A stretch of 64,000 bases of DNA. Origin: Bacteroides sp. (GTDB lineage Bacteria > Bacteroidota > Bacteroidia > Bacteroidales > Muribaculaceae). This document shows positions 22,666 through 33,816 of the stretch, in pieces. Position numbers and translations under genes: made by a program. Below the pieces are notes generated by a model. It searched no databases, was not told where the DNA came from, and worked only from the letters and a program-made list of their open reading frames with translations. The stretch's first letter is position 1; the number at the start of each line of letters is the position of its first letter. Location of the stretch: NCBI GenBank assembly GCA_014802435.1, contig JAAVCG010000032.1, positions 1-64,000 on the forward strand, written 5' to 3'.

Positions 22666-24231
22666 GTGGCTATCCTAATTATCTTCGCCGCCATGTGCGG
22701 CCTCTCTGCTCTTTGGACGGAATTCTCGCGCACCCTGATGATGCTCCAGCAGAATTCCTACCGCATTGACCGATATAATCGCTATCTCAACAACTCCGGC
22801 GAGATGACCTCCGTCGGCAAGCTCCTTGGCGCCGCACTCCTCCTGTTCTGCCTCATCGGCTGGGTGCCTATGTGGATGGCCGCCGCGCTCCAAATCATCT
22901 TCTTTGTGATTTATAAAGTCAAGGCCCTCCGCAAGAAGTATAAAAAACCCTTGGTTGTAACTCCCCGCGTCAATCGCCTCTATGGCGCGATGTATTGCAT
23001 CTTCGTGCTCCTCTGCGTATGGTTCTCGCTGGGGCAGAATCTTGAAGGAATCTTCATGGCGATATCTACCGTAGCCCTCGGATGCTGGTTTGCCTCCCCC
23101 TGGATTGCTATGGCTGCCGTCTGGCTTCTGAAACCCGTTGAAAAACGCATCAATCAGAAATATGTCGACGATGCCGCCCGAATTATCGCCTCCATGCCTG
23201 ACCTCAAGGTTATAGGCATCACCGGCTCTTACGGCAAAACTTCTACCAAACATTACCTCCAGCGCATCCTCTCTGAAAAATTCAGCGTCTGCATGACTCC
23301 CGGCTCGTTTAACACGACGATGGGCGTTGTCCGCACTATCCGCGAATACCTTAAACCCTATGACCAGGTCTTTATCTGCGAGATGGGCGCCAAACAGCCC
23401 GGCGACATCAAGGAAATCTGTGACCTTGTCCATCCCGTCTGCGGCATCGTGACCGCCGTCGGTCCCCAACACCTCGAATCATTCAAGACCATTGAAAACG
23501 TTCAGCGCACCAAGTTTGAACTCATCGATTCCCTCCCTGCCGACGGTTTGGCTATTATCAATGATGACTTCCCCTTCGTTGCCAATCGCCCCGTAAGCAA
23601 TATCGAGGCAATCCGTTATGGCGTCAAAGGGCGCCCGGAGATCCAATACTGGGTTGACGACATCAATTACTCCGCATCAGGCACTGACTTCACCATCTGG
23701 AGCCATGACGCCGAGCCCCTCCGGCTCCATACTCAGCTCGTCGGCGAATGTAACGTCTCAAACCTCGTTGCCGCCGTGATAGTCGGCCTCCGCCTCGGAG
23801 TCAGCCGCGAACAGATTGCCTATGCCGTTGAAAAAATCGAGCAGGTTGAACATCGACTCAGCATCAAGCGCCTCCCCGGAAACGTCACCATCATTGACGA
23901 TGCCTTCAACTCTAACCCGACCGGCTCAGCCATGGCCCTCGACGTCCTCGCCGCCATGCCCGGCACCCGGGTAATCATCACCCCCGGAATGATTGAACTC
24001 GGCTCCGAACAGTTTGAACTAAACCGCAAGTTCGGCGAAAAAATTGCCTGCTCCTGTGATGTAGCCATCATCGTCGGCCACTACAACCGCGAAGCCATCC
24101 TCGCCGGTCTCGAAGGAGCAAAGGGCGTTAACGTCCTCCCCGTCGACTCCTTCACCGAGGCCCTGACCCTCCTCCCTAAAGCAGACTACACCGTACTCTA
24201 CGAAAACGACCTCCCCGACACCTTCAAATAA
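22666..24231 (+). CDS. Membrane-embedded MurF-like Mur ligase
   Basis: A 521-residue protein with about four N-terminal hydrophobic segments (about 1-25, 45-80, 105-150), then a full Mur-ligase domain. The ATP loop is TGSYGKTST (186-194). It has the central-domain ENVQRTKFEL and INDDFPF motifs and the C-terminal ligase motif IDDAFNSNPTGSAMALDVL. Canonical MurF has a soluble N-terminal UDP-MurNAc-binding domain. Here that is replaced by membrane helices, so this may act on a membrane-bound substrate or be a MurF variant of this lineage. The start codon is GTG at 22666. A strong hairpin follows at 24301-24335. Confidence 0.82.
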   Translation: MAILIIFAAMCGLSALWTEFSRTLMMLQQNSYRIDRYNRYLNNSGEMTSVGKLLGAALLLFCLIGWVPMWMAAALQIIFFVIYKVKALRKKYKKPLVVTPRVNRLYGAMYCIFVLLCVWFSLGQNLEGIFMAISTVALGCWFASPWIAMAAVWLLKPVEKRINQKYVDDAARIIASMPDLKVIGITGSYGKTSTKHYLQRILSEKFSVCMTPGSFNTTMGVVRTIREYLKPYDQVFICEMGAKQPGDIKEICDLVHPVCGIVTAVGPQHLESFKTIENVQRTKFELIDSLPADGLAIINDDFPFVANRPVSNIEAIRYGVKGRPEIQYWVDDINYSASGTDFTIWSHDAEPLRLHTQLVGECNVSNLVAAVIVGLRLGVSREQIAYAVEKIEQVEHRLSIKRLPGNVTIIDDAFNSNPTGSAMALDVLAAMPGTRVIITPGMIELGSEQFELNRKFGEKIACSCDVAIIVGHYNREAILAGLEGAKGVNVLPVDSFTEALTLLPKADYTVLYENDLPDTFK

Positions 24232-24245
24232 CCCCCCAAATATTC

Positions 24246-24276
24246 TCTATGGAAAGGCGGATTCCGATCCGCCGCC
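24246..24276 (+). repeat. REP-like element, single half
   Basis: One forward copy of the dispersed palindromic unit: CTATGGAAA followed by GGCGGATTCCGATCCGCC and GCC. The core is itself a hairpin (GGCGGAT/ATCCGCC). No inverted partner lies nearby. Confidence 0.8.
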
Positions 24277-24300
24277 CCGTCAAAAAATCGCAAAATTACA

Positions 24301-24335
24301 CCGGGGACGACAGGCTCAATGCCTGCCGTCCCCGG
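24301..24335 (+). terminator. Hairpin terminator after the Mur-ligase-like gene
   Basis: CCGGGGACG at the left and CGTCCCCGG at the right enclose ACAGGC/GCCTG, giving a very stable stem 70 bases past the stop codon. There is no T-run after it. Confidence 0.6.
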
Positions 24336-24432
24336 TAAAGTATCCCTCGCAAAATCACCGGGACCGACACGTGCCCTTGAGCCTTCCTCATCCGCAAAAA
24401 ACGTCCCTCTCCCCCTTTCATCGCGTCCAATA

Positions 24433-24464
24433 TTTGGTAATCTCGCAAATATTTCGTAATTTTG
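24433..24464 (+). promoter_or_regulatory. Promoter of the DGR locus
   Basis: TTTG (24433-24436), a 20-base spacer and TAATTTTG (24457-24464) match the Bacteroidetes consensus exactly. The start should be near 24470, about 375 bases ahead of the first coding gene. Confidence 0.85.
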
Positions 24465-24469
24465 CCGCG

Positions 24470-24785
24470 ACCTTACGCCGCGGGTGTCTTTTGGGAGACA
24501 TCGGAATGTGGGAGGTCATTACATAATGAAAAGCGTCTTCTTGCGCTTGATTCTTGGCTATCAGAAATGTGGCAATTTCTAAAAGTATTGGCAAGGATGA
24601 AGCAACAGTAGATGCCTAAGGGTATGATTATATCCTGATTTGAAGTCGCAGTGATGTGGGTTCTTATCAGCTATATAGTTATCATACGGCGTAGGCTCTA
24701 TGTTGCTCGTTCTCCAATGAATGGCGATGCCACATGCCTTGATAGCGGAGCGAGTAACAGGTAGTGACCCTACGCTTTTCGTTTT
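24470..24785 (+). ncRNA. Structured RNA or long leader upstream of the DGR genes
   Basis: This is a roughly 315-base non-coding transcript segment that I do not recognise. Helices visible by eye: GTGTCT/AGACAT (24485-24501), AAGCG/CGCTT (about 24524-24542), AGAAAT/ATTTCT and GGGTAT/ATATCC. At the 3' end is a two-part stem, GCGTAGG (24689-24695) with CCTACGC (24769-24775) and GTTGCTCG (24702-24709) with CGAGTAAC (24751-24758, one G-U pair). TTTTCGTTTT follows, so the last stem resembles a terminator or attenuator. It could be an independent RNA or a regulated leader. The boundaries are estimates. Confidence 0.6.
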
Positions 24786-24845
24786 CTATCAGTTTGAACC
24801 TGACCGGGTTGGGGTCCTCGAGTCAACTAATTCATTATTATCACA

Positions 24846-25328
24846 ATGAAAAGGTTTTTTGTTGTTATTTTTGTGGCTACTGTGGCCGCTATGTTTGGCC
24901 TTGACTCCTTTGCCGCCGCGAAAAAAGTAGCCGTCTTTGTTGAGGGCAACGTCTCAAAGGAGCAAAAGACAATGGTCAATAACTCGGTTATGTCCAGGCT
25001 CTCCGGAAATAAAGACTACAAAGTCTTTGAACGCAACAATGCTTTCCTGTCTGCCCTCGAAAAAGAGCATGATTACCAGCTGAGCGGCGTGTGCTCGGAA
25101 GCACAGATTCGTAAAATCGGTGAACGCATGGGCGTTGACTATGTCATTGCCGTATGTGCCGTTTTGACTGACGATGACCAATGTCAGATGTCGGCCCGCC
25201 TCATCGACCTTGAATCCGGCGAAGTGCTGAAAACCTGTAATGCCTCACGTGAGTTTGAAGATTCCTCGACCATTACGGCCCTCGCCAATAACGTTGCCTA
25301 TCGTTTAATCTCTAAAAAATCAAGATAA
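24846..25328 (+). CDS. Small exported protein related to the DGR target N-terminus
   Basis: A 160-residue protein with a signal peptide (about 1-24). The rest aligns by eye with the first 155 residues of the next gene. Shared features are KKVAVFVEG/KKVAVYVTE, a VFERNNAFLSALEKEHDYQLSG/ILERNAEFLKAIHADRDFNHSG-like helix (compare in short pieces), MGVDYVIAV/LGAKFILVI and an RLIDLESGEV/RMVNAETGVV strand. The fold suggests the CsgG/LpoB/TolB-N type periplasmic domain. It lies 3 bases before the target gene and is surely co-transcribed. It may be a partner that assembles with the variable protein. No known function can be named. Confidence 0.82.
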   Translation: MKRFFVVIFVATVAAMFGLDSFAAAKKVAVFVEGNVSKEQKTMVNNSVMSRLSGNKDYKVFERNNAFLSALEKEHDYQLSGVCSEAQIRKIGERMGVDYVIAVCAVLTDDDQCQMSARLIDLESGEVLKTCNASREFEDSSTITALANNVAYRLISKKSR

Positions 25329-25331
25329 GAT

Positions 25332-26420
25332 ATGAAGCAGTTTGTTTGCCGTCTTATGGCTTTCTTGCTGATTGCTTTCTGCGTGGCTCCGATTCATGCG
25401 CAGGAAATTGCACGCAAAAAAGTTGCTGTCTATGTCACGGAAAGTGATGTGGACGATGCTGTCAAGAAGATTGTCCAAAATAAAATTATTTCAACTCTGA
25501 CTCATAGCCCCAAATATCAGATTCTTGAGCGCAATGCGGAATTCCTAAAGGCTATTCATGCTGATAGAGACTTCAACCACTCCGGCGAAGTCAGAGATAA
25601 CGATATCGCCGCCATTGGTAAAGGCTTGGGTGCAAAATTTATCCTTGTTATAGATGTTTCCGAGGTATTTGACGACTTATATATCGCTGCACGTATGGTT
25701 AATGCCGAAACGGGCGTTGTGCAGGACTCTGCCGAAGAATTGCTTTCCGACCCCACCTCCGCCAAACTCGTCGCTGCAGCTGAAAAAATTGCAAAAGGAG
25801 TGGTCGGCAACACCACCTCTTCATCCTCAACCGGTACTGTCAGTTCCACAGACGGAAACATTGAAACATTTACCGTCAATGGCGTAACCTTCGATATGGT
25901 CAAGGTAAACGACACTTTCAGTATCGGCAAAACCGAAGTAACTCAACGCCTGTGGCGCGCCGTCATGGGCAACAATCCCTCCAAGTTCCTTGGCGAAAAT
26001 AGCCCTGTGGAAATGGTGTCTTGGTATGATTGCCAAGAATTTTGTGACAAGTTAAGCCAATTGACCGGACGCATTTTTCGCTTGCCGACAGAGGCCGAAT
26101 GGCTTTATGCTGCGCGTGGTGGCGAAAAGAGTCGCGGCTATGAATATAGCGGAAGCAACGATTTATATCGCGTTGCGTGGTACACTGAAAATAGTGGACA
26201 AATGACTCATCCCGTGGGCCAAAAGATGCCTAACGAACTTGGCATCTTTGACATGTCCGGCAATGTCTGGGAATGGTGCTCTGACCTATATGATAGCTCT
26301 AATCGCGTCTTTCGGGGCTGTGGCTGGGACGGCGATGCCTCCTACTGTCGTTTTGCCTTTCGCAACTACTTTGCTCCGGGTAACCGCGCCGGTAGCCTTG
26401 GCTTTCGCCTCGCTCTCTAA
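25332..26420 (+). CDS. DGR target: exported protein with FGE/C-type-lectin domain and VR
   Basis: A 362-residue exported protein. It has a signal peptide (about 1-23), a CsgG/LpoB-like domain (about 27-160) shared with the gene before it, and a Ser/Thr-rich linker (160-176). A formylglycine-generating-enzyme (SUMF1) type C-type-lectin domain follows (about 178-362), with IGKTEVTQRLW, FRLPTEAEW and MSGNVWEW. The last 42 codons lie inside the VR. Variable positions fall between residues 327 and 356, so the ligand-binding face of the lectin fold is the diversified surface. The protein is probably periplasmic or surface-exposed. Its stop codon lies within the conserved repeat end. Confidence 0.92.
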   Translation: MKQFVCRLMAFLLIAFCVAPIHAQEIARKKVAVYVTESDVDDAVKKIVQNKIISTLTHSPKYQILERNAEFLKAIHADRDFNHSGEVRDNDIAAIGKGLGAKFILVIDVSEVFDDLYIAARMVNAETGVVQDSAEELLSDPTSAKLVAAAEKIAKGVVGNTTSSSSTGTVSSTDGNIETFTVNGVTFDMVKVNDTFSIGKTEVTQRLWRAVMGNNPSKFLGENSPVEMVSWYDCQEFCDKLSQLTGRIFRLPTEAEWLYAARGGEKSRGYEYSGSNDLYRVAWYTENSGQMTHPVGQKMPNELGIFDMSGNVWEWCSDLYDSSNRVFRGCGWDGDASYCRFAFRNYFAPGNRAGSLGFRLAL

Positions 26421-26421
26421 G
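26295..26421 (+). repeat. DGR variable repeat (VR) with IMH end
   Basis: 127 bp matching the TR at 27994-28120 without gaps. The first 15 bases and the last 22 (26400-26421, GGCTTTCGCCTCGCTCTCTA plus AG) are identical; the latter is the initiation-of-mutagenic-homology region and includes the stop codon. In the 93-base core, 18 of 26 TR adenines are substituted (to G, T or C), against 11 of 67 other bases. Six of the non-adenine changes cluster in the first four core codons. Counts were made by hand alignment. Confidence 0.93.
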
Positions 26422-26473
26422 GGACACTGATGTTTGATGAAATTCCACAGTCCTTTTGACTGTAAGTTTAACT

Positions 26474-26543
26474 CGGGGTTGGCGTTTTTTGCCTAATGAG
26501 GCAAAGCGGAGCTTGCCGAAAAGGGCAAAAAACGCCAACCCCG
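26474..26543 (+). other. Long hairpin/cruciform between VR and the HRDC gene
   Basis: Perfect 20-bp arms CGGGGTTGGCGTTTTTTGCC (26474-26493) and its inverse (26524-26543) enclose a 30-base loop. That loop forms its own hairpin (GGCAA...TTGCC, 26500-26517, with a GGA tip). It lies 53 bases past the VR end. In studied DGRs a hairpin or cruciform just downstream of VR promotes target recognition. It could also attenuate transcription into the HRDC and RT genes. Confidence 0.75.
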
Positions 26544-26559
26544 CAAATTTCAATAATTA

Positions 26560-27033
26560 ATGCAGATAAAGTTTTTTACTATTCCAGTTTTGTCGTCCAA
26601 TGAGGAGGACGCTATTAACAAGTTCCTTCGCTCGGTCAAGGTGCCGGAAGTGAAGAAAGAGCTTGTTTCAGTGGGTGCCGGTGTCTACTGGGCTATATGT
26701 GTGGTGTTTCTAAATGATGGGAGAGCTGAAAGCTGTCAATCTGCAAGTCGGGAAAAGATTGAATATAAGACAGTATTGTCTGAGGCGGATTTTAAGCAGT
26801 TCTGTATACTGAGAAAACTTCGTAAACAGCTGTCGGATGATGATGCGGTCCCGGCGTTTGCTGTATTTACTGATTCAGAACTTGCTGAAATCGCAAAGTT
26901 GTCAGAAATAAATCCTTCCATGATGAAAACTATCAAAGGAATAGGGGCCAAAAAGATTGATAAGTATGGAGAGAAAATGTGTAAATTATTAATGGAGTTT
27001 GAAGATAATGAAAAGGGCCGGCTCTTTGATTGA
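26560..27033 (+). CDS. HRDC-domain DGR accessory protein
   Basis: A 157-residue protein whose second half (about 78-146) is an HRDC (helicase and RNase D C-terminal) domain, a nucleic-acid-binding helical bundle. The visible markers are KLRKQLSDDDAVPAFAVFTDSELAEIAKL (seen in short pieces) and the MKTIKGIGAKKIDKYGEKM helix-hairpin-like segment. HRDC proteins replace Avd as the accessory factor in a subset of DGRs, where they are thought to help the RT act on the template RNA. It overlaps the RT gene by 26 bases. Base composition is AT-rich compared with the core genes. Confidence 0.85.
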   Translation: MQIKFFTIPVLSSNEEDAINKFLRSVKVPEVKKELVSVGAGVYWAICVVFLNDGRAESCQSASREKIEYKTVLSEADFKQFCILRKLRKQLSDDDAVPAFAVFTDSELAEIAKLSEINPSMMKTIKGIGAKKIDKYGEKMCKLLMEFEDNEKGRLFD

Positions 27034-27901
27034 CAAGATTACTTCATTAGACAATTTGGCTTTGGCGGCATATAAGGCGTTTAGAGGAAAACAATATAAA
27101 CAAACCGTTATAAACTTTCGAAAGACCTTTTTAGAGAATATTCAGGAATTGCGCACTGAAATAATTGAAGAAAGAATCGAATTGGGCCAATATCACAAAT
27201 TTACCATCTTTGAACCGAAAGAACGCCTGATTTGTGCTGCGCCGCTAAAACAGAGAATAATCCATCATGCCATAATGAACGTGTGTCATGATATATTTGA
27301 CAAAAATCTCATTTATGATTCGTATGCCTCTCGGCCTTTAAAAGGTACTCATGAAGCAGTCAAAAGAGTGCAGGCTATCATGCCCGGTTACTCTTATTTT
27401 GTTAAATTGGATATAAGGAAGTATTTTGATAGCATTAATCATGGTCTGCTTAAAATGAAATTGCGACTGTTGTTTAAGGATAAGAGATTATTGCGTATTT
27501 TTGATGAAATTATTGATAGTTACGGGGAGGGGCAAGGACTCCCGATAGGAAATCTGACAAGCCAATATTTTGCTAACTATTATTTGTCTTCGTTGGACCA
27601 TCACATGAAGGAAATCGTAGGATGTAAACGTTATGTTAGATACATGGATGATGTTATTATCTTGGCGAAGTCAAAAAGTGAAGTGATAGATTATAAGAAT
27701 GATTATGTGAAGTATGCCAATCAGGAATTGTCTTTGCAAGTAAAGCCTCCGATTATAGGTAAGATTAGCAATGGAATTCCCTTTTTGGGTTTTAAGATTT
27801 TCAGGAATCTAATTTTATTAGCGGGAAAAGCCAAAAGACGTTACCGCAAAACAATCAGGATTTTAAACAGGCTTTTTGAGGAGAAAAAATTGGGGAATTA
27901 G
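27008..27901 (+). CDS. DGR reverse transcriptase (open frame truncated by frameshift)
   Basis: A 297-codon reverse transcriptase of the DGR clade. It has the fingers/palm motifs, with the catalytic aspartate in FVKLDIRKYFDS (Asp135), the DGR-type motif LPIGNLTSQ (178-186) in place of the QGxxxSP of other RTs, and the YMDD box (212-215, RYVRYMDDVIIL). The start is the ATG at 27008; a TTG at 26999 is less likely. The frame ends FEEKKLGN-stop just after an A6 run (27884-27889). The expected thumb/C-terminal segment continues in the -1 frame. It would copy TR RNA with errors at adenines and feed cDNA into VR. As sequenced it lacks about 30 C-terminal residues. Confidence 0.93.
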   Translation: MKRAGSLIDKITSLDNLALAAYKAFRGKQYKQTVINFRKTFLENIQELRTEIIEERIELGQYHKFTIFEPKERLICAAPLKQRIIHHAIMNVCHDIFDKNLIYDSYASRPLKGTHEAVKRVQAIMPGYSYFVKLDIRKYFDSINHGLLKMKLRLLFKDKRLLRIFDEIIDSYGEGQGLPIGNLTSQYFANYYLSSLDHHMKEIVGCKRYVRYMDDVIILAKSKSEVIDYKNDYVKYANQELSLQVKPPIIGKISNGIPFLGFKIFRNLILLAGKAKRRYRKTIRILNRLFEEKKLGN

Positions 27902-27993
27902 AATATAGCCATCGGATACAGTCCATGGTCGCCTATGTTGCTTTTGCTGATTCTTATATTTTCAGAAAAAAAGTGTTGGATAAATGTCAGTAG
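27895..27993 (+). pseudogene. Displaced C-terminal part of the DGR reverse transcriptase
   Basis: In the -1 frame the DNA after the RT stop encodes ELEYSHRIQSMVAYVAFADS followed by YIFRKKVLDKCQ and a stop at 27991-27993. This is the arginine-, serine- and alanine-spaced C-terminal segment expected of DGR RTs. One extra A in the A6 run at 27884-27889 would join it to the upstream frame, giving a protein of about 330 residues. The restored stop codon would lie immediately before TR. It may be a true deletion, a phase-variable tract or a sequencing error. Confidence 0.8.
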
Positions 27994-28120
27994 AGCTCTA
28001 ATCGCGTCCTGCGTGGTGGCAGCTGGAACAACAATGCCTCCAACTGTCGTGTTGCCAATCGCAACAACAATACTCCGGATAGTCGCAATGGCAACAATGG
28101 CTTTCGCCTCGCTCTCTAAG
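27994..28120 (+). repeat. DGR template repeat (TR)
   Basis: A 127-bp non-coding template, colinear with VR. Read in the VR frame it gives a virtual peptide with 11 AAC/AAT codons plus AGC, ACT, GAT and AGT. All adenines of the core sit at first or second codon positions, so adenine mutagenesis changes residues without making stop codons. The last 22 bases (28099-28120) equal the VR end. A weak hairpin (GCATTAA...TTAATGC, 28180-28201) lies downstream and might bound the TR RNA. Confidence 0.93.
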
Positions 28121-28493
28121 CTTACAGTCATAAAGGATGTGGATTCATCTGAAACGCAGTGTAACCCGACGTTTATCCTGCATTAATCGTTAAATTAATG
28201 CGAATTATCTGTTTATGCAGAACTGATGCTGATGTTGGTACTCATATTGAGGAAGGCTTCAGCATCTACTTTTTGGCATAAAGGTCAAATATTCTCTATG
28301 GAAAGGCGGATTCCGATCCGCCGCCCCGTCTGATGACGAGTCTAAGTGGAGCGCGGCGCCTCCCCAAGGTTTTGACTCACCGCAGACTGCGCGGCGGATC
28401 GGAATCCGCCTTTCCATAGGCTTCGCTCACGACCCGGCTTGCGTCTGCATTTTGATTATGGAATAGAAACGGCGGTTTCGGAAACCGCCGTTT
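28121..28493. other. Gene-free stretch after the DGR, with a REP-like pair and terminator
   Basis: No gene is visible. It contains the hairpin at 28180-28201 and a head-to-head REP-like pair. One half lies at 28295-28326 (forward) and one at 28392-28419 (reverse), about 65 bases apart, so the unit can fold into a long stem. A strong terminator (AAACGGCGGTTTC, 28467-28479, with GAAACCGCCGTTT, 28481-28493, then T-rich on both sides) ends the minus-strand patatin gene. Confidence 0.8.
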
Positions 28494-33556: not shown

Positions 33557-33705
33557 TTTTTTCCTAAGGAAGTTGATTTTTGAGCCTCCGTCAGTCGGCC
33601 TTGAGCCGGTTTATGCGGGCGAGATTGTATATTTTATCTCCTTATCGGGGCGTTTGGCTGATAAAATTGCATATTATGACGGGCTATGGTTTAATATTTT
33701 ATGCA

Positions 33706-33816
33706 CAAAAAAATAAGGACGTTATCCCAACGTCCTTATTCCTTAACCTTTATCTTAATCTAATACTATGAAAAACACACACTGCAAAGTTAGGCACTTT
33801 TTCTGAATCTGGCAAT
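33706..33816 (-). ncRNA. Candidate small RNA with own promoter and terminator
   Basis: On the minus strand ATTG (33813-33816), a 20-base spacer and TAACTTTG (33785-33792) form a promoter. About 70 bases downstream is an intrinsic terminator: AATAAGGACGTT, loop, AACGTCCTTATT (33712-33740), then a run of U. The predicted RNA spans about 33779 to 33707. It lies between two minus-strand genes and contains no reading frame on that strand. The rest of the gap 33557-33851 shows nothing else. Confidence 0.6.

What the first reader, a model, noticed from the sequence alone, without database searches (positions are those of the whole stretch)
24433..28120. Complete HRDC-type diversity-generating retroelement with an FGE/CsgG-like fusion target
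Seen directly: a 127-bp VR at the 3' end of a target gene, a colinear 127-bp TR after the RT gene, identical ends including a 22-base IMH, and biased substitution at TR adenines (18 of 26 against 11 of 67). The RT carries the DGR-type LPIGNLTSQ and YMDD motifs, and an HRDC gene replaces Avd. Known: DGRs diversify C-type-lectin folds by adenine-specific mutagenesis. Inference: the target couples a periplasmic CsgG/LpoB-like domain to a diversified lectin face, an unusual architecture for a DGR target.
Basis: partly seen in the sequence, partly recalled or inferred. Interest (0 to 1): 0.9.

Follow-up and report, generated by a model that had tools for sequence, protein, structure and literature searches.

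The report
Hypervariable lectin retroelement under RNA leader
A gut bacterium of the family Muribaculaceae carries a gene-rewriting retroelement of a known kind whose lectin-like target protein differs between sister strains only in the rewritten tip, although the reverse transcriptase is frame-broken in this assembly; in front of it lies a conserved, pseudoknotted RNA element found across that bacterial family, absent from Rfam, and likely to act as an on/off switch for surface genes.

Summary
VR 26295-26421 and TR 27994-28120 are colinear; 18 of 31 TR adenines but 11 of 96 other bases differ (P=5.5e-7). Target, HRDC gene and DGR-type RT are present: a chromosomal HRDC-type DGR of Muribaculaceae, a known kind. 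Sister proteins P0001 and P0007 match the target outside the VR and differ only inside it, so the element has diversified this lineage. Corrections: the RT of this assembly is frame-broken near its C-terminus while intact copies exist; the VR was probably not written by the TR beside it (11 non-A changes against at most 7 in 92 other loci; P0001 is fully reachable from this TR); the CsgG/LpoB-like fusion recurs. Unlooked-for: leader 24437-24833 belongs to a multi-copy structured RNA family with a pseudoknot and mutually exclusive helices (28 of 37 collected copies aligned, 95.8% of cells paired). It has no Rfam match, occurs in 136 of 149 family genomes and 3 of 395 phylum genomes, own included, and precedes CsgG-like pairs, BspA-type repeat proteins and other genes.

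The parts
24433..24464 (+). promoter-like TTTG (24433-24436) and TAATTTTG (24457-24464) boxes of the Bacteroidales type (consensus recalled)
   Evidence: TAnnTTTG stands at the same alignment columns in 25 of 28 leader copies; the TTTG box was not tested in other copies
24437..24833 (+). conserved structured leader element, about 390 nt, ending 13 nt before the ATG at 24846
   Evidence: fold z -5.1; covariation on 28 sequences; no Rfam family; 37 copies at E<=1e-15 among the fetched loci chosen
24689..24775 (+). terminator-like hairpin of the leader (outer arms 24689-24694 and 24770-24775), followed by TTTT; competes with the outermost long-range helix for the same 3' strand
   Evidence: helix 1, 97.9% of cells paired; helix 1, 93.9%
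24846..25328 (+). upstream CsgG-like protein with a signal-peptide-like start (by eye), 160 aa
   Evidence: Pfam CsgG 25.7 bits, cut-off 20.8
25332..26420 (+). DGR target: signal-peptide-like start (by eye), CsgG/LpoB-like N-terminal domain, FGE-sulfatase-type (C-type lectin) C-terminal domain, 362 aa
   Evidence: Pfam FGE 131.3 bits; CsgG 16.9 bits, below its cut-off of 20.8; fold matches
26295..26421 (+). variable repeat (VR)
26447..26463 (+). 6-bp hairpin (ACAGTC-CTTTT-GACTGT) starting 26 bases past the VR end; the same letters follow the target of G007
   Evidence: sequence; G007
26560..27033 (+). HRDC accessory protein, 157 aa, overlapping the RT start by 26 bases
   Evidence: Pfam HRDC 52.4 bits, cut-off 23.8
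27008..27901 (+). DGR-type reverse transcriptase, 297 aa as assembled; frame broken shortly before 27899, C-terminal stretch out of frame to 27993
27994..28120 (+). template repeat (TR)

Best explanation
This is a chromosomal HRDC-type diversity-generating retroelement whose target protein is the same in two sister sequences outside the variable repeat and different inside it, and whose reverse transcriptase is frame-broken in this assembly, so that this copy has likely stalled. Shown: TR, VR, HRDC gene, RT and target, adenine-biased mismatches, VR-only differences among sisters, the RT frame break, and a conserved leader element with covarying helices and its own promoter-like box. Inferred: the TR transcript is reverse-transcribed with errors at adenines and replaces the VR, giving new loops on the lectin domain of an exported protein whose CsgG/LpoB-like N-terminal domain would assemble with the CsgG-like protein encoded just upstream. 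Inferred: the VR here was written from an earlier or different TR allele, and the present TR came in later by recombination or drift. Inferred: the leader, as RNA, switches between a terminator-like hairpin and an antiterminating pseudoknotted fold, so that the lectin operon is expressed only under some condition shared with other surface genes of the cell.
For: Adenine bias 18/31 against 11/96. DGR-type RT: 63 of 80 genome-contig loci and 22 of 28 viral loci found with it carry an adenine-biased TR/VR pair at P<1e-5; of 60 genome-contig loci with a recognised target ORF, 58 have an HRDC match. HRDC above its Pfam cut-off. P0001 differs from the target at 19 of 362 residues, all in the VR; P0007 at 15 of 241, all in the VR. 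P0001's VR is reachable from the window TR by adenine-only change at 41 of 41 residues, the window's own VR at 37 of 41. Of 92 fetched TRs 47 read in the FGE frame; asparagine stands in 44 of 47 at each of two positions where the window TR has serine and glycine. P0121, 328 aa, matches the window RT at 294 of 296 residues and carries in frame the C-terminal stretch that is out of frame here. Leader: 46 pairs in 6 helices, 95.8% of cells paired, covariation score 0.492 against 0.211 shuffled and at most 0.111 slid; the terminator-like helix also covaries.
Against: The frame break sits beside a short run of one base and could be an assembly error; no reads were available. The template-switch reading rests on protein-level comparison; of the window VR's four unreachable residues two (Cys 330, Phe 341) fit neither the window TR nor the consensus TR, and no donor TR allele was found as DNA. 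The structure model is weak (mean pLDDT 63.9, VR region below 50). The target's N-terminal domain misses the Pfam CsgG cut-off. Nothing shows that the leader is transcribed or that it switches; 7 of 20 further copies examined have no ORF starting within about 40 bases of the leader end.
Confidence: 0.8

Rival explanations
1. The DGR is fully active in this very strain; the RT frame break is an assembly error at a homopolymer run, and the non-A changes are ordinary drift or error-prone homing.
For: Intact RT copies exist in sister sequences; non-A substitutions are known in DGRs: present in 46.3% of TR-VR pairs, about 1.5 per pair on average (PMC6642488, passage seen).
Against: Eleven non-A changes exceed each of 92 other loci measured the same way (89 distinct pairs; maximum 7, median 1), and 4 of 41 VR residues are unreachable from the present TR while P0001 has none.
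Confidence: 0.3
2. Dead remnant: the DGR module is being lost, as at the same chromosomal site in G007, which keeps the leader, both CsgG-like genes and a VR-like tail but has no HRDC, RT or TR there.
For: G007 site; of 9 other genomes with a CsgG-FGE fusion only 1 (G266) has an RT match anywhere; RT frame broken here.
Against: HRDC and most of the RT are intact; P0001 and P0007 show VR-only change. Three of the 9 genomes are under 90% complete.
Confidence: 0.35
3. The VR/TR pair is a plain duplication that diverged under selection, without retrohoming.
For: Eleven non-A differences, several silent.
Against: Adenine bias P=5.5e-7, VR-only differences between sisters, DGR-type RT and HRDC alongside.
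Confidence: 0.03
4. The leader is a free-standing small RNA gene that merely lies in front of the operon, or a dispersed repeat, and not a cis-acting switch.
For: It has its own promoter-like box and a terminator-like hairpin; copies occur before unrelated genes, and 7 of 20 further copies have no ORF close behind.
Against: In 30 of 37 collected copies an ATG frame of 70 aa or more starts between 30 bases before and 35 bases after the leader end, and in 22 of 33 CsgG-like loci the leader abuts or overlaps the start of the first ORF. Copies are too diverged for a recent repeat (mean column identity 44%).
Confidence: 0.25

Closest known systems
HRDC-type DGR of Treponema denticola (PMC4891356, passages seen)
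   Same: FGE-sulfatase-type lectin target, HRDC accessory gene overlapping the RT gene
   Different: Here the target has a CsgG/LpoB-like N-terminal domain and follows a CsgG-like gene and a structured leader; the RT is frame-broken and the VR does not derive from the present TR
Bacteroides DGRs that vary pilus tip proteins (cited in PMC12632263, passage seen; the study itself is not held)
   Same: Gut Bacteroidales, surface-type targets
   Different: The target here shows no pilin family in Pfam: CsgG/LpoB-like plus FGE domains
Cellular DGRs of the global survey by Roux et al. (PMC8144416, passages seen)
   Same: Targets with signal peptide or membrane anchor, adenine bias, clades that include Bacteroidetes
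   Different: That survey measures activity in reads; none could be used here
PelC / LpoB / CsgG / TolB fold group
   Same: Fold comparison of the target's N-terminal part; PelC is a dodecamer in the PDB titles, CsgG forms a ring (recalled)
   Different: Fused to a diversified lectin domain; ring formation here untested
Attenuator and riboswitch-like leader RNAs (general class; recalled)
   Same: Long leader, covarying alternative helices, terminator-like hairpin with a T run, position just before an ATG
   Different: No Rfam family matches; one family, up to 22 detected copies per genome, before unrelated genes

Membership tests
diversity-generating retroelement | TR/VR pair with adenine-biased mismatches | tested here: met
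   18/31 against 11/96, P=5.5e-7
diversity-generating retroelement | reverse transcriptase of the DGR kind | tested here: met
   LPIGNLTSQ and YMDD in the ORF; relatives carry adenine-biased TR/VR pairs in 63 of 80 genome loci. No RT tree was built, so clade placement is indirect.
diversity-generating retroelement | VR at the 3' end of a C-type-lectin-like target | tested here: met
   VR is the last 41 codons plus stop of a gene with Pfam FGE-sulfatase 131.3 bits
diversity-generating retroelement | initiation-of-mutagenic-homing end (IMH in VR, a slightly different copy in TR) | tested here: inconclusive
   23 identical bases at the 3' end, no VR/TR difference within them
diversity-generating retroelement | VR variation among close relatives limited to TR-adenine codons | tested here: inconclusive
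   Met by P0001, 41 of 41 residues; not by P0007 (3 unreachable) or the window VR (4) against this TR; P0007's three fit the consensus of other TRs. Protein level only.
working DGR in this assembly (state of this copy, not family membership) | uninterrupted RT frame; VR derivable from own TR | tested here: not met
   RT is 31 residues shorter than P0121; 4 of 41 VR residues unreachable
HRDC-type DGR | HRDC accessory gene in place of Avd | tested here: met
   Pfam HRDC 52.4 bits, cut-off 23.8; no other + strand ORF of 80 aa or more lies between target and RT
CsgG family (target N-terminal domain) | Pfam CsgG score above the cut-off | tested here: not met
   16.9 against 20.8 bits; in the aligned family LpoB matches 17 of 41, CsgG 15, FlgO 15 at E<=0.01. 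Called CsgG/LpoB-like only.
CsgG family (upstream protein) | Pfam CsgG score above the cut-off | tested here: met
   25.7 against 20.8 bits; pore or ring formation not testable
known structured RNA family | Rfam match at gathering score over 24437-24833 | tested here: not met
riboswitch | ligand-dependent control of expression | not testable with these tools
   only covarying alternative helices shown

The most novel reading that the evidence does not exclude
A previously unnamed, pseudoknotted leader RNA, present in about nine of ten Muribaculaceae genomes at up to some twenty copies each, is a terminator/antiterminator switch that coordinates a surface-gene regulon (BspA-type repeat proteins, CsgG/LpoB-like pairs, lipoprotein-like genes), and it gates a hypermutated lectin, so that the cell decides when to display its retroelement-made variants.
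Probability: 0.4. Interest if true: 0.85.

Novelty: new variant of a known kind. Interest (0 to 1): 0.58.

Why it matters
The DGR alone adds one member to a known kind, but its sisters give a natural case of likely template turnover: the same target with VRs that fit different templates. The leader would matter more: a large, multi-copy, covariation-supported RNA element of a gut bacterial family (host name from named Der matches), often in front of surface genes, outside Rfam. It makes two questions testable: what signal governs these surface genes in Muribaculaceae, and whether DGR output is under condition-dependent control.

Tried and rejected
Cassette mobilised by its flanking 45-bp repeats (24237-24281, 28286-28330): rejected, because the 28-base core occurs 216 times in the genome at up to 3 mismatches (0 for the reversed control), so it is a genome-wide repeat.

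Second VRs for this TR elsewhere in the genome: none found.

Phage origin: not supported. The neighbours are a Mur ligase and a patatin-like gene (Pfam), with Der behind; the viral loci found with the RT are 28-45% identical.

Known RNA for the leader: Rfam at gathering score gave no match there; at E up to 5 the six matches in 24230-24900 were all below their gathering scores, the best (drum, E 0.11) on the minus strand. Paper searches, listings only, showed no description (12 of 1,541 listed; 4; 10). Of PMC8040213, which reports thousands of human-microbiome candidates, I saw passages only, and its tables could not be read, so a match there is not excluded. Of PMC7366714 I saw passages.

Structure: one AlphaFold job, weak overall, used only for fold-group comparison.
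Full report
WHAT IS THERE. The window holds a Mur ligase gene 22666-24231 (Pfam), a leader 24437-24833, a CsgG-like gene 24846-25328, the target 25332-26420, an HRDC gene 26560-27033, an RT frame 27008-27901, a TR 27994-28120 and, on the other strand, a patatin-like gene from 28494. VR (26295-26421) and TR are 127-base colinear copies, 77% identical. Of 31 TR adenines 18 differ in the VR, of 96 other bases 11 (Fisher P=5.5e-7). TR and VR were found once each in the genome.

KIND. Among 80 genome loci found with this RT, 64 carry an adenine-biased repeat pair at P<1e-3 and 63 at P<1e-5; among 28 viral loci, 22. Of 60 genome loci with a recognised target ORF, 58 have an HRDC match; of 21 such viral loci, none. 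HRDC DGRs with FGE targets and an HRDC gene overlapping the RT are described for Treponema denticola (PMC4891356, passages). This is a member of a known kind.

ACTIVITY IN THE LINEAGE. P0001 has the target's length and differs at 19 residues, all between 324 and 356, within the VR (which begins at residue 322). P0007, a shorter entry, differs at 15 of 241, all in the VR. All 41 VR residues of P0001 can be had from the window TR by changing adenines alone; P0007 has 3 and the window's own VR 4 that cannot. Of the 120 listed target homologues, 84 share the same C-terminal end; compared without gaps from that end, P0001 is the only one with no unreachable residue, the others have 2 to 22. This is protein-level evidence that a TR like this one has written VRs in sister strains.

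THIS COPY HAS PROBABLY STALLED. The RT frame stops at 27899-27901, while the stretch homologous to other RTs' C-termini runs on in another frame to 27993. The near-identical P0121 (294 of 296 residues) is 328 aa and intact. The window's own VR has 11 non-A changes; across 92 other loci (89 distinct pairs, best pair each) the highest is 7 and the median 1 (the finder penalises non-A mismatches, so those counts lean low). In 47 of 92 TRs that read in the FGE frame, asparagine stands in 44 at each of the two positions where the window TR has serine and glycine; at a third position 30 have asparagine and 12 leucine, the window TR leucine. The unreachable residues of P0007 (3 of 3) and two of the window VR's four fit that consensus; the other two do not. 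The simplest reading is that the present TR is not the one that wrote this VR. The literature average is about 1.5 non-A changes per pair (PMC6642488, passage).

THE TARGET. The N-terminal domain misses the Pfam CsgG cut-off (16.9 against 20.8 bits); in an alignment of 41 relatives LpoB matches 17, CsgG 15 and FlgO 15. The predicted model is weak (mean pLDDT 63.9), but Foldseek lists PelC, TolB, LpoB and CsgG chains, and PvdO, among its best PDB matches. The fusion is not unique: 11 of 101 target ORFs match the N-terminal domain (10 of 86 loci). In the family, 26 of 397 genomes, own included, have the domain. In 30 of 33 fetched loci it comes as a pair of ORFs, mostly a short protein followed by a longer one whose C-terminal part varies; 9 of the 33 carry FGE and only one (L158) has HRDC, RT and TR. 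Of the 9 genomes behind those, one (G266) has an RT match anywhere; six of the nine are at least 90% complete, and none of those six has one. At the same site between Mur ligase and patatin-like genes, G007 has leader, both CsgG-like genes and a VR-like tail but no HRDC, RT or TR, and G006 has a short-chain dehydrogenase gene. So the retroelement looks like a part-time tenant of a wider gene system. No paper naming this fusion as a DGR target appeared in the listings.

THE LEADER. The bases before the operon (24433-24850) fold far better than shuffles (z -5.1, 0 of 100). Plain DNA search found related stretches in 9 of 11 genus genomes, several of them short, and 37 copies at E<=1e-15 were collected from chosen fetched loci. 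In 30 of these 37 an ATG frame of at least 70 aa starts between 30 bases before and 35 bases after the leader end; in a further 20 regions, 13 have a frame of at least 60 aa that close and 7 do not. In 22 of 33 CsgG-like loci the leader abuts or overlaps the start of the first ORF (one partial, at a contig edge); in one the contig ends too early, and 10 have none there. Twenty-eight of the 37 copies were aligned (nine lower-scoring ones left out). On them a structure of 46 pairs in six helices, one crossing the others as a pseudoknot, pairs in 95.8% of cells; its covariation score is 0.492 against 0.211 in shuffles and at most 0.111 when partners are slid; four of five measures exceed all 500 shuffles and the fifth all but 2. 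The nested part came from RNAalifold on the same alignment and the pseudoknot from reading its columns, which favours them, but 28 pairs show changes on both sides. A terminator-like hairpin, followed by a T run, uses the same 3' strand as the outermost long-range helix and also covaries: two exclusive states. A model of the last 100 bases finds it in 136 of 149 family genomes, 1 to 22 copies each, 11 in this genome, and in 3 of 395 phylum genomes including this one. Only the first 27 and 10 candidates per genome were scored in those two searches (this genome gave 8 in the second), so copy numbers are lower bounds and absence outside the family is less firm. Rfam has no match. What follows the leader varies: of 19 downstream proteins scanned, chosen from 17 copies not in front of the CsgG-like pairs, 5 have BspA-type leucine-rich repeats and 1 CsgG/LpoB; others include a uracil-DNA-glycosylase superfamily and an SRA-domain protein, and five have no Pfam match at E<=0.01. 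One copy in this genome keeps only the 5' part (L197/L272).

MECHANISM. Shown: anatomy, adenine bias, sister variation, frame break, leader covariation. Inferred: retrohoming by this RT, template turnover, surface display by a CsgG/LpoB-like assembly, transcription of the leader and control by it.

Noticed in passing
24237-24281, 28286-28330, 28385-28419: Copies of a genome-wide repeat (GGCGGATTCCGATCCGCC core), 216 places in the genome at up to 3 mismatches.
   Followed up: yes
33704-33778 (-): FopS sRNA family match (RF04319), 58.2 bits against a cut-off of 56.
   Followed up: no
26474-26543: Strong inverted repeat (31-base arms, 84% complementary) between target and HRDC gene.
   Followed up: no
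26444-26470 and 28117-28143: The stretch after the VR is an inverted copy (81% complementary) of the stretch after the TR; possible role in homing unknown.
   Followed up: partly
L004, L005, L006, L007, L009 (genus mates): Other DGRs in the same genus with adenine-biased repeats; only L004 of these five has an HRDC match in the fetched stretch.
   Followed up: partly
L149 4586-4735; L212 372-1115: The junction between Mur ligase and patatin-like genes is a variable site: FGE target without RT in G007, short-chain dehydrogenase gene in G006.
   Followed up: partly
L273 937-5714 (-): A leader copy precedes an operon with two small proteins that resemble WXG100 (23.9 and 18.9 bits, both below the cut-off of 27.3).
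   Followed up: partly
L268 5675-6106 (-): A leader copy precedes an SRA-domain protein (Pfam 48.9 bits) and a 1040-aa protein with BspA-type repeats.
   Followed up: no
L201 3908-4780 (+): A leader copy precedes a uracil-DNA-glycosylase superfamily protein.
   Followed up: no
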